The notes under the pieces were generated by a model that was given only the letters and a program-made list of their open reading frames with translations, did not search any database and was not told where the DNA came from. A DNA stretch of 10,705 nucleotides from Hepatocystis sp. ex Piliocolobus tephrosceles (lineage: Eukaryota; Apicomplexa; Aconoidasida; Haemosporida; Plasmodiidae): assembly GCA_902459845.2 (NCBI GenBank), contig CABPSV020000679.1, positions 1 through 10,705 of the forward strand, in the 5' to 3' direction. Below, piece by piece: positions 362-1,893 of the stretch (position 1 is the first letter of the stretch; every line of letters begins with the position of its first letter). The position numbers and the translations under genes were made by a program.

Positions 362-1893
362 ATAATAATAATAATAATGAAAGTTATGAAGATATAGACA
401 TTGGAAGTTTAAGTATATTACCCGAACCAGATGAATTATACAATTTTTTAATAAATGAAGAAATGAACGAAAATGAAAAAAATAATTTTATAAATAATCC
501 AAGTATAGTTAAAGATTCAAAAAAAACAATTATAAAACAAAAAATATCAAAGTCTTATTTTTTAGAATTGTATAAACAAGCATTAAGTTATTTTGATATA
601 GATGGATATAATTTTTTAATAAATAAAGTAATGCATAAAGACTATAATAATAGATTTGTACAAAAAACAAAAAGATTAAATATGTCATATGTTCATTGTG
701 ATAAGAGAGTTAGTAATAAAGATACTGCTGGAAACATATTAAAAAGGAGGAGAAAGAAACAAAAAAATCCAAAAAATAAGGATAATAACAGTGGTAATAA
801 CAGTGGTGATAATACACAATATCCTGGTGGTGCTATACGAGCAAATTATGGAGAAAACTTAAGCCAATGGATGAAGTCATCTTTAGAAAATATAGAAACA
901 CCTAAATCGATTAAAGAACCTGGATTAGCAAATATGTTAATACAAAGTTTAAGTATGGTTAGAGGTTTAATACAATCTGTTGCGAGTACAGTTGTAGATA
1001 TTGTACCTCCATTAATTCCTCCTCCTTTTTGGATTAATAGACCTTTACCATGTTTGCCTATGGTTACTGGTAAAAATTGTTTAGGATCTATTTTATATCC
1101 TATTACAGCTTCTGAATTTGTAACAGCAAATATAACAGATTCCATTATGAATGGTATTATAGCTAGTTTCCCTTCAAAATATGCAGCAAAAATTGGAAAA
1201 ACATCAGATGAAAGATATAAGTTATGTGCTATGACTTATTTAGGTATGTATTGTGCTTCTTTATTTCCAATATGTTGGCTTCCTATAGGATTAAGAGTAG
1301 CTGAAACAATGTCAGTTTGCTTCCCACAATGTCTAGCTACATTAATAGCATGTCCTGGTTTTTGGCTAGATGATATAGAAGGACCTTGTAGTAATGCATC
1401 TGTTCCACCTTTCTGCTCATTTTCAATTTTTATAAATCAAAAAATTGTACCACCACAATTAACAAGTTATGATACATCCCATTCTTATCCTGTTACTTGT
1501 CCATCTGAAGATAAAGATTATGATATATCTGATAATTTATATGAACACGATCAGGAAAATAAACAAAGCATTTTTACAAAAGAAAAAAAAAAATATAATA
1601 ATCTAAAGTTACCTGTTTATTCACCTTTAGTTACTGATATATATGATACACATGTGGGTATAAAAAAAATAGAAACTTGTCATTGTATGAATATAATAGA
1701 TTTATGTACAAAACATTTTGCCATTCCTGTTGTGAATGATAGTAGTAATACATTTATTGATTCGAGACATGAAGAACCGGTACCTATCCGTTTAAGTATA
1801 AAGAATAAAAGGTGTTGTCAGACTTGCAAGCCGATATGGTTACTCCTGCGTCCTTCGAAAAAAAAAACATTGTCGGAATATAAGTTAGCATAG
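116..1893 (+). CDS. secreted cysteine-rich protein with Frizzled-type CRD, frame broken in a poly(A) run
   Basis: The 5' frame (116-397) begins with a hydrophobic Phe-rich signal peptide, likely cleaved near residue 18. It then runs through an acidic stretch into poly-Lys. The downstream frame is open from the A run to the stop at 1893: an Asn stretch, a basic linker, a Pro-rich lead-in (VPPLIPPPFW), then a cysteine module. Counting from the in-frame Met at 463, the module's cysteines are residues 197, 206, 255, 264, 271, 286, 290, 297, 309 and 318. The spacing C-x8-C-x6-C ... C-x3-C-x6-C, with a GFW block before the ninth Cys, matches Frizzled cysteine-rich domains. A C-terminal group follows (346, 406, 408, 415, 451, 452, 455). 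The two halves differ in frame across the 51-A tract; one extra A or two fewer would join them into about 590 residues. I see no membrane segment after the signal peptide. Function is unknown; secretion or surface display during invasion or transmission is inference. Confidence 0.85.
309..359 (+). repeat. 51-base A homopolymer inside a coding region
   Basis: Fifty-one consecutive A residues lie between a Glu-rich 5' part and an AAT (Asn) run. The flanking frames differ by one base. Homopolymers of this length are poorly measured by any sequencing chemistry, so a length error is the simplest explanation. A true frameshift allele, or slippage by polymerase or ribosome, is also possible. Confidence 0.9.

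What the first reader, a model, noticed from the sequence alone, without database searches (positions are those of the whole stretch)
1051..1416. Frizzled-type ten-cysteine domain in a secreted Plasmodium protein
The ten cysteines (residues 197-318 counted from the Met at 463) reproduce the Frizzled CRD order and spacings: C-x8-C near the start, then C-x8-C-x6-C, C-x3-C-x6-C, and two more. The local blocks also agree: a PIC ending before the fifth Cys, and GF-W before the ninth. The signal peptide upstream places it in the secretory pathway, where such disulfides form. Frizzled CRD relatives bind lipids, sterols, folate or Wnt-like ligands in other eukaryotes. A parasite version could be a ligand-binding or lipid-binding surface module. 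I know of no described Wnt pathway in Plasmodium, so a different ligand is expected.
Basis: partly seen in the sequence, partly recalled or inferred. Interest (0 to 1): 0.8.

Follow-up and report, generated by a model that had tools for sequence, protein, structure and literature searches.

The report
Frizzled-like domain in secreted parasite protein
A malaria-related parasite and its relatives share a very conserved, probably secreted protein whose core resembles the ligand-binding domain of animal Frizzled receptors; its function is unknown and its fold still needs to be solved.

Summary
Ten cysteines at window 1051-1416 are spaced C-x8-C-x48-C-x8-C-x6-C-x14-C-x3-C-x6-C-x11-C-x8-C. The window is from Hepatocystis sp. 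ex Piliocolobus tephrosceles, nested within Plasmodium. One copy was found in its assembly. Relatives occur in Plasmodium, Toxoplasma, Babesia, Theileria equi, Eimeria, Porospora, Amoebophrya and unnamed environmental sources. Each of the ten cysteines is kept in 70-73 of 73-74 covering sequences, and two flanking ones nearly as well. Pfam Fz is the only family matched repeatedly: 51 of 76 members, best E 4e-4, below Pfam's cut-off. In a matched control, 24 of 25 native members matched against 0 of 25 with cysteines fixed and other residues shuffled. Against: the window's own protein does not match, small Fz profiles did not discriminate, and Foldseek on a low-confidence model listed no Fz. 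Best reading: a new 12-cysteine variant of the Frizzled-like domain in a probably secreted alveolate protein, perhaps binding a conserved parasite ligand or partner. Fold, pairing and ligand are unproven.

The parts
116..397 (+). 5' reading frame with the start Met, a hydrophobic signal-peptide-like stretch (MKDLFCFFLYFFIFFACEQ) and an acidic/lysine-rich spacer; its open frame runs into the A run and stops at 395-397
   Evidence: hydropathy 1.88 from residue 3 of P0002 (no signal-peptide program was run); the deposited protein begins with these residues
309..359 (+). 51-base A run that separates the signal-peptide-like frame from the main frame; the deposited protein is 14 bases shorter than 116-1893, so its model seems to pass over part of this stretch
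   Evidence: length arithmetic (587 aa plus stop = 1764 bases against 1778)
361..1893 (+). main open frame of the protein (510 aa plus stop); conserved blocks FDxxGY, HCD, FPGG, IVPPLIPPPxW and the CRD
697..699 (+). extra conserved Cys (HCD motif), Cys in 62 of 65 covering sequences; inferred partner of the Cys at 1498
922..1002 (+). predicted hydrophobic/amphipathic helix before the domain (residues 154-180 from Met463). Of 81 Met-start members with the ten-Cys pattern, 5 (P0024, P0025, P0031, P0036, P0045) have a stretch of hydropathy 2.0 or more just before the domain
1051..1416 (+). ten-cysteine Frizzled-like domain: predicted strand just after C1, helix between C2 and C3, helix bearing C3 and C4, helix bearing C7, short helix bearing C9
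1498..1500 (+). extra conserved Cys downstream of the domain (CP motif), Cys in 70 of 73 covering sequences
1678..1827 (+). C-terminal cysteine cluster CxC...C...CCxxC, shared by most apicomplexan members; its first Cys is kept in 38 of 64 covering sequences and is missing in Amoebophrya, Porospora and most environmental members

Best explanation
The gene encodes a probably soluble, secreted protein whose conserved core is a divergent Frizzled-like cysteine-rich domain with one extra conserved cysteine pair. By analogy with Fz CRDs the ten core cysteines would pair C1-C5, C2-C4, C3-C8, C6-C10 and C7-C9 (pairing scheme recalled), with the flanking pair tying the HCD segment to the end of the domain (inferred). 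The domain most likely works as a disulfide-locked helical binding module. It is far more conserved than the rest of the protein (121 of 178 positions identical between Hepatocystis and Toxoplasma), although the hosts of these parasites differ, so I think it binds a conserved parasite component (a hydrophobic ligand, or a partner protein of the secretory or apical membrane system) rather than a host receptor. Shown: the cysteine pattern, its conservation, a signal-peptide-like start in this gene, the Fz profile signal and its control. Inferred: secretion, fold, pairing, ligand class and site of action.
For: Ten-Cys expression present in 64 of 75 sequences (74 homologues plus the window fragment) and in 89 of all 101 held. 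Pfam Fz matched by 25 of 50 and 51 of 76 members of two overlapping alignments, every other Pfam family by one member. In the 14 Fz matches printed with coordinates (3, 10, 1) the match lies on the C3-C8 part in the same register. Matched control: 24 of 25 native against 0 of 25 Cys-fixed shuffles; earlier 0 of 10 shuffles whose 10 native parents all matched. Best PDB sequence match of the A2 profile, though not significant (E 0.061), was a chain named Ror2, aligned in Cys register. Predicted helix order around the cysteines is compatible with that described for the Smoothened and ROR2 CRDs (passages of PMC3809587 and PMC11219042). One database names the P. inui homologue an FZ domain-containing protein (name cut short there). 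Identity to Toxoplasma: domain 121/178 against 7/38, 51/133 and 20/104 in the other parts.
Against: The window protein does not match Pfam Fz, nor do P0003, P0011, P0018, P0022, P0026, P0031 and P0042 scanned singly; no score reaches the cut-off (highest printed 20.9 of 32.1 bits). hhalign against a profile of six Fz-family CRDs was not significant (P 0.21); 68 of 200 full column shuffles and 95 of 200 Cys-fixed ones scored as high. HMM searches both ways were mostly within shuffles. Profiles A4 and A6 did not find the Ror2 chain. The full-length AlphaFold model has pTM 0.47, with no Fz in Foldseek or VIA-align. For secretion: by a crude hydropathy scan only 39 of 81 Met-start members with the ten-Cys pattern have a hydrophobic N-terminus (some models may be truncated), and 9 of 81 have a stretch of 2.0 or more after residue 40.
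Confidence: 0.55

Rival explanations
1. The domain is a lipid or sterol carrier of the pocket/groove kind (like Smoothened, Fz8 or NPC1), moving a hydrophobic ligand through the secretory pathway or onto the parasite surface.
For: [quoted passage not shown] The best, non-significant PDB profile match is 7me4, named Ror2; the fly ROR2 homologue Nrk has a deeply buried fatty acid in its CRD (PMC11219042 passage). That 7me4 is this fly protein is my recall and was not checked. Strong conservation of the domain fits a fixed small ligand.
Against: Human ROR2 and MuSK CRDs lack the groove (PMC11219042 passages), so the fold does not guarantee a ligand. No pocket could be modelled here.
Confidence: 0.4
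2. The domain is a host-facing adhesin or receptor-binding module released during invasion.
For: Signal-peptide-like start in this gene. Hits with organism names are parasites or symbionts, apart from one bee assembly. Many apicomplexan invasion proteins are Cys-rich (general knowledge).
Against: Domain identity of 121/178 with Toxoplasma and 83-88/177 with Amoebophrya is hard to reconcile with adaptation to such different hosts. No localisation data were seen either way.
Confidence: 0.2
3. The ten-cysteine pattern is a convergent or unrelated cysteine-rich helical fold, and the Fz profile matches are spurious.
For: Small-profile tests did not discriminate; Foldseek listed no Fz; all Pfam Fz scores printed are below the cut-off.
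Against: Matched control 24/25 native against 0/25 Cys-fixed shuffles; Fz is the only repeatedly matched family; compatible helix order.
Confidence: 0.25
4. The gene is broken or mis-assembled and does not make a secreted protein in this organism.
For: Signal-peptide-like frame and domain frame differ and are separated by a 51-base A run.
Against: The domain frame has no stops and is 83-87% identical to nine Plasmodium-type orthologues over the domain; deposited proteins of related species hold an N-terminal hydrophobic start and the domain together. Long A runs are a common place for length errors in sequencing (general knowledge).
Confidence: 0.05

Closest known systems
Frizzled receptor CRD (Fz8, PDB 6ahy, 1ijy)
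   Same: Ten Cys in the same order, exact C3-x8-C4-x6-C5 and C6-x3-C7-x6-C8
   Different: No 7TM part; loop lengths differ (C2-C3 48 against 36, C8-C9 11 against 16); two extra conserved flanking Cys; family HMM scores Fz8 at -0.7 bits, within shuffles
Ror-type CRD (PDB 7me4, named Ror2)
   Same: Best PDB sequence match of family profile A2, aligned in Cys register
   Different: E 0.061 only, not found with profiles A4 and A6; no kringle or kinase part
Smoothened extracellular CRD
   Same: Compatible helix order around the cysteines (PMC3809587 passages); best native score of the family HMM among six CRDs, 3.2 bits, reached by 2 of 200 full and 13 of 200 Cys-fixed shuffles
   Different: No receptor part; score not significant
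Pocket-type CRDs: NPC1 N-terminal domain, folate receptor, riboflavin-binding protein
   Same: Belong to the same Fz-like CRD group by fold according to PMC3809587 (passages)
   Different: No Pfam family of theirs is among the 13 families printed for 76 members
CLAMP-linked invasion protein CLIP
   Same: Conserved apicomplexan protein entering the secretory pathway
   Different: P. berghei CLIP is 277 aa with a C-terminal transmembrane domain (passage of PMC13042080); not this gene

Membership tests
Pfam Fz (PF01392) | Score at or above the curated cut-off (32.1 bits) | tested here: not met
   Window protein no match; highest printed member 20.9 bits; best E 0.00042
Fz-like CRD superfamily | Ten Cys in Fz order with C3-x8-C4-x6-C5 and C6-x3-C7-x6-C8 | tested here: met
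   each Cys kept in 70-73 of 73-74 covering sequences
Fz-like CRD superfamily | Profile similarity beyond cysteine spacing | tested here: inconclusive
   For: 24/25 native against 0/25 Cys-fixed shuffles with Pfam Fz. Against: six-sequence Fz profiles do not discriminate
Fz-like CRD superfamily | Helical-bundle fold superposable on Fz8/Smo/ROR2 | tested here: inconclusive
Fz-like CRD superfamily | Conserved disulfide pairing | not testable with these tools
   No coordinates or mass spectrometry; cysteines almost invariant, so no covariation
Fz-like CRD superfamily (groove/pocket members) | Hydrophobic ligand groove or pocket | not testable with these tools
   No usable model
Frizzled/Smoothened receptors | Seven-transmembrane receptor part after the CRD | tested here: not met
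   Hydropathy scan: of 81 Met-start members only 9 have any stretch of 2.0 or more after residue 40, 5 before and 4 inside the domain at their peak; none in the window protein
Pocket-type CRDs (NPC1 N-terminal domain, folate receptor) | Profile match in Pfam | tested here: inconclusive
   None among the 13 families printed for 76 members at E<=10, but HMMER's filters hide most weak matches

The most novel reading that the evidence does not exclude
An ancient alveolate secreted Frizzled-like module, present before Apicomplexa and the Amoebophrya lineage split, binds a lipid or lipidated parasite protein that is part of the shared apical secretory machinery; it would be a non-animal use of the Wnt-receptor domain at the core of parasitism.
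Probability: 0.2. Interest if true: 0.85.

Novelty: new variant of a known kind. Interest (0 to 1): 0.5.

Why it matters
Frizzled-like CRDs are best known from animal Wnt and Hedgehog reception, sterol handling and vitamin binding. A strongly conserved version in Apicomplexa and Amoebophrya, found in one copy in the genome searched, would be an unstudied protein with a testable biochemical hypothesis (what does its groove or surface bind?) and possibly a function shared by the whole phylum. The domain is much more conserved than the rest of the protein, which points to one old, shared partner.

Tried and rejected
Identity with CLIP of the CLAMP complex: rejected, different length and architecture (passages). 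A literature record of this family: all ten searches of the held library were used. The seven combining Frizzled/FZ terms with Plasmodium, Toxoplasma, apicomplexan, alveolate, microneme, sporozoite or parasite showed no paper that describes a parasite-encoded Fz domain, judged from listings; of those papers I opened passages only of PMC5483515 and PMC6722137, both unrelated. One search had 5023 loose matches of which 40 were listed, and one search had 21 of which 15 were listed. Subscription papers are not held; Pei and Grishin 2012 on Fz-CRDs in other eukaryotes (recalled) could not be read. PMC13369866, the P. falciparum schizont spatial proteome, gave passages without this gene; I did not know the P. 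falciparum gene number to look for.

Prokaryotic or viral copies: P0090 gave none in viral contigs, and 10 pattern matches in genome contigs none of which encoded a relative. hhalign and small HMM tests against six Fz-family CRDs were meant as support and came out negative or undecided. Foldseek (7 rows) and VIA-align (9 chains aligned) on the whole-protein model listed no Fz; that absence is no evidence of a different fold. Pfam Fz sought in the whole Hepatocystis genome gave nothing, but nothing rang in the control genomes either, so it says nothing.

Absences in the homologue lists: no Cryptosporidium, Theileria parva or T. annulata name among the 62 and 68 hits. Only the candidates sharing most words were scored, so I do not claim loss. 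Rows left out: alignment A4 holds the window domain and 75 of the 101 held protein ids; P0002 and near-identical, fragmentary or irregular members were left out.

The hydropathy statement was recounted on 81 members.

Full report
What the window is. The domain frame is 100% identical to a deposited protein of Hepatocystis sp. ex Piliocolobus tephrosceles, P0002, 587 aa, 'conserved protein, unknown function'. The assembly is held as G000 (12.39 Mb, 611 contigs), where the window is C588:1-10705. Hepatocystis is nested within Plasmodium (passage of PMC7425995). The plus-strand gene has a start Met and a hydrophobic, signal-peptide-like N-terminus at 116, a 51-base A run at 309-359, and the main frame from 361 to 1893. 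The frames before and after the A run differ; I describe this and leave it. A protein search of the assembly found one match, this gene (only best candidates are scored).

The observation. The six-cysteine core pattern did not occur in 20000 composition shuffles. In an alignment of 74 homologues (proteins), each of the ten positions is Cys in 70 to 73 of the 73 or 74 sequences that cover it; the exceptions are P0034, P0035, P0040 and P0068-P0074, which look like fragments or irregular gene models. A Cys in the upstream HCD motif (62 of 65) and one in the downstream CP motif (70 of 73) are kept as well, so twelve cysteines are conserved. Of 64 sequences matching a ten-Cys expression that itself fixes five of the spacings, 61 have 8, 48, 8, 6, then 13-18, then 3, 6, 11, 8. 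Over all 101 held sequences, 89 match the expression.

The family. One search (single sequence) gave 62 hits at E<=0.001; others (profile A2; profile A3) gave 68 and 35 at E<=10, with limits on the candidates scored. Named sources are Plasmodium species, Hepatocystis, Toxoplasma, Besnoitia, Cyclospora, Eimeria, Cardiosporidium, Babesia, Theileria equi, Porospora and Amoebophrya, and one bee assembly (Hylaeus volcanicus) that I take to carry a parasite contaminant (inference; it groups with Porospora in the tree). The rest are unnamed, largely from short contigs. A quick FastTree of the domain shows three groups: apicomplexans, an Amoebophrya-containing group, and an environmental group around P0063 (midpoint root, supports not inspected). 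No prokaryotic or viral relative of P0090 was found.

Is it Frizzled-like? The window's protein matches no Pfam family, and P0003, P0011, P0018, P0022, P0026, P0031 and P0042 do not match Fz when scanned singly. Family-wide, Fz is matched by 25 of 50 members of A2 (best E 0.0018) and 51 of 76 of A4 (best E 0.00042); every other family appears once. In the 14 matches printed with coordinates the stretch is the C3-C8 part in register, and the highest printed score is 20.9 bits against a cut-off of 32.1. To ask whether cysteine spacing alone explains this, I shuffled all non-cysteine residues of the domain in environmental members: 0 of 10 and 0 of 25 matched Fz, while the native parents matched in 10 of 10 (chosen because they matched) and 24 of 25 (not chosen for matching). 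Natives were scanned full length and shuffles as domains only.

Results against. With a profile of six CRDs checked against the PDB, hhalign gave P 0.21, and 68 of 200 full column shuffles and 95 of 200 Cys-fixed column shuffles scored as high. HMM scores in both directions were low: of 12 family members searched with the Fz profile, P0063, P0093 and P0095 beat all 200 full shuffles but were reached by 4, 5 and 11 of 200 Cys-fixed ones; none of six Fz CRDs searched with the family HMM beat all shuffles. The A2 profile's best PDB match was a chain named Ror2 (E 0.061), not found with A4 or A6. Thus the link to Fz rests on the cysteine pattern, the Pfam profile with its control, and secondary structure.

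Structure. One AlphaFold2 job ran (A2, 476 residues): mean pLDDT 67, pTM 0.47, with blocks of 83-95 over residues 221-270 and 89-94 over 291-310. Strand just after C1, helix 216-243 between C2 and C3, helix 249-267 with C3 and C4, helix 287-296 with C7, helix 302-312 with C9. Smoothened has helices 1, 2, 3 and 3' and five disulfides (passage), and ROR2's five bridges link strand 1, the loop before helix 1, helix 2, helix 3 and the neighbouring loops (passage); the present order is compatible. Foldseek listed no Fz among 7 rows and VIA-align saw only nine chains. The fold is therefore unproven.

How it may work. This gene has a signal-peptide-like start and no other strongly hydrophobic stretch. 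Across 81 Met-start members with the ten-Cys pattern, 39 have a hydrophobic N-terminus by a crude scan, and 9 have a stretch of hydropathy 2.0 or more after residue 40: P0024, P0025, P0031, P0036 and P0045 just before the domain, P0063, P0086, P0092 and P0093 inside it. A soluble secreted protein is thus likely for the window gene and less certain for the whole family. Conservation sits in the domain: 121 of 178 positions identical to Toxoplasma and 83-88 of 177 to Amoebophrya, against 7 of 38, 51 of 133 and 20 of 104 for the other parts compared with Toxoplasma. That pattern suggests a fixed, shared partner rather than a changing host receptor. Fz-like CRDs bind palmitoleate, sterols or vitamins in grooves or pockets; the fly ROR2 homologue Nrk buries a fatty acid, while human ROR2 and MuSK have no groove. 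Lipid binding is therefore a hypothesis, not a default.

Novelty. A database name for the P. inui homologue reads FZ domain-containing protein, so the resemblance has been noted automatically. I found no paper describing it in the searches named under Tried and rejected. It is best called a new variant: a twelve-cysteine, receptor-less, alveolate Fz-like CRD, not a member of Pfam Fz at its cut-off.

Noticed in passing
window 6326-7255 (-): Complete Thg1 (tRNA-His guanylyltransferase): Pfam Thg1 E 4.3e-48 and Thg1C E 7.5e-33.
   Followed up: yes
window 8316-10262 (-): 648-aa ORF without Pfam match, with about ten copies of a six-residue repeat of the type SNEKSL encoded by an 18-base tandem array at 8541-8727.
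   Followed up: partly
window about 2729-5348 (-): Looks like a gene of many short exons (open stretches such as SSYIKQKNPCRWGVDVLQYQLTPPKKIYKHVDNL and INLIPNVEEQRKTQRINAYTGNTACSISLT); seven pieces had no Pfam match.
   Followed up: partly
window 2021-2262: Tandem array of 17 copies of a 14-base unit TTTATAACATGGTA after the gene.
   Followed up: no
window 10634-10705, 309-359, 1913-1960, 7259-7306, 10406-10449: Very long A/T homopolymers of 44 to 72 bases; the contig ends in a 72-base A run, and one run separates the two frames of the gene studied.
   Followed up: partly
C-terminal ends of P0022, P0034, P0035, P0036, P0027, P0040: A short C-terminal motif GHVIPV (also GHVLEM, GHIIPV, GHIIHV) recurs in coccidian and gregarine-like members, with GSPVYP at a similar place in several Plasmodium proteins.
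   Followed up: no
P0027 (Hylaeus volcanicus assembly): A bee genome assembly holds an apicomplexan-type member that groups with Porospora, probably a parasite contaminant.
   Followed up: no
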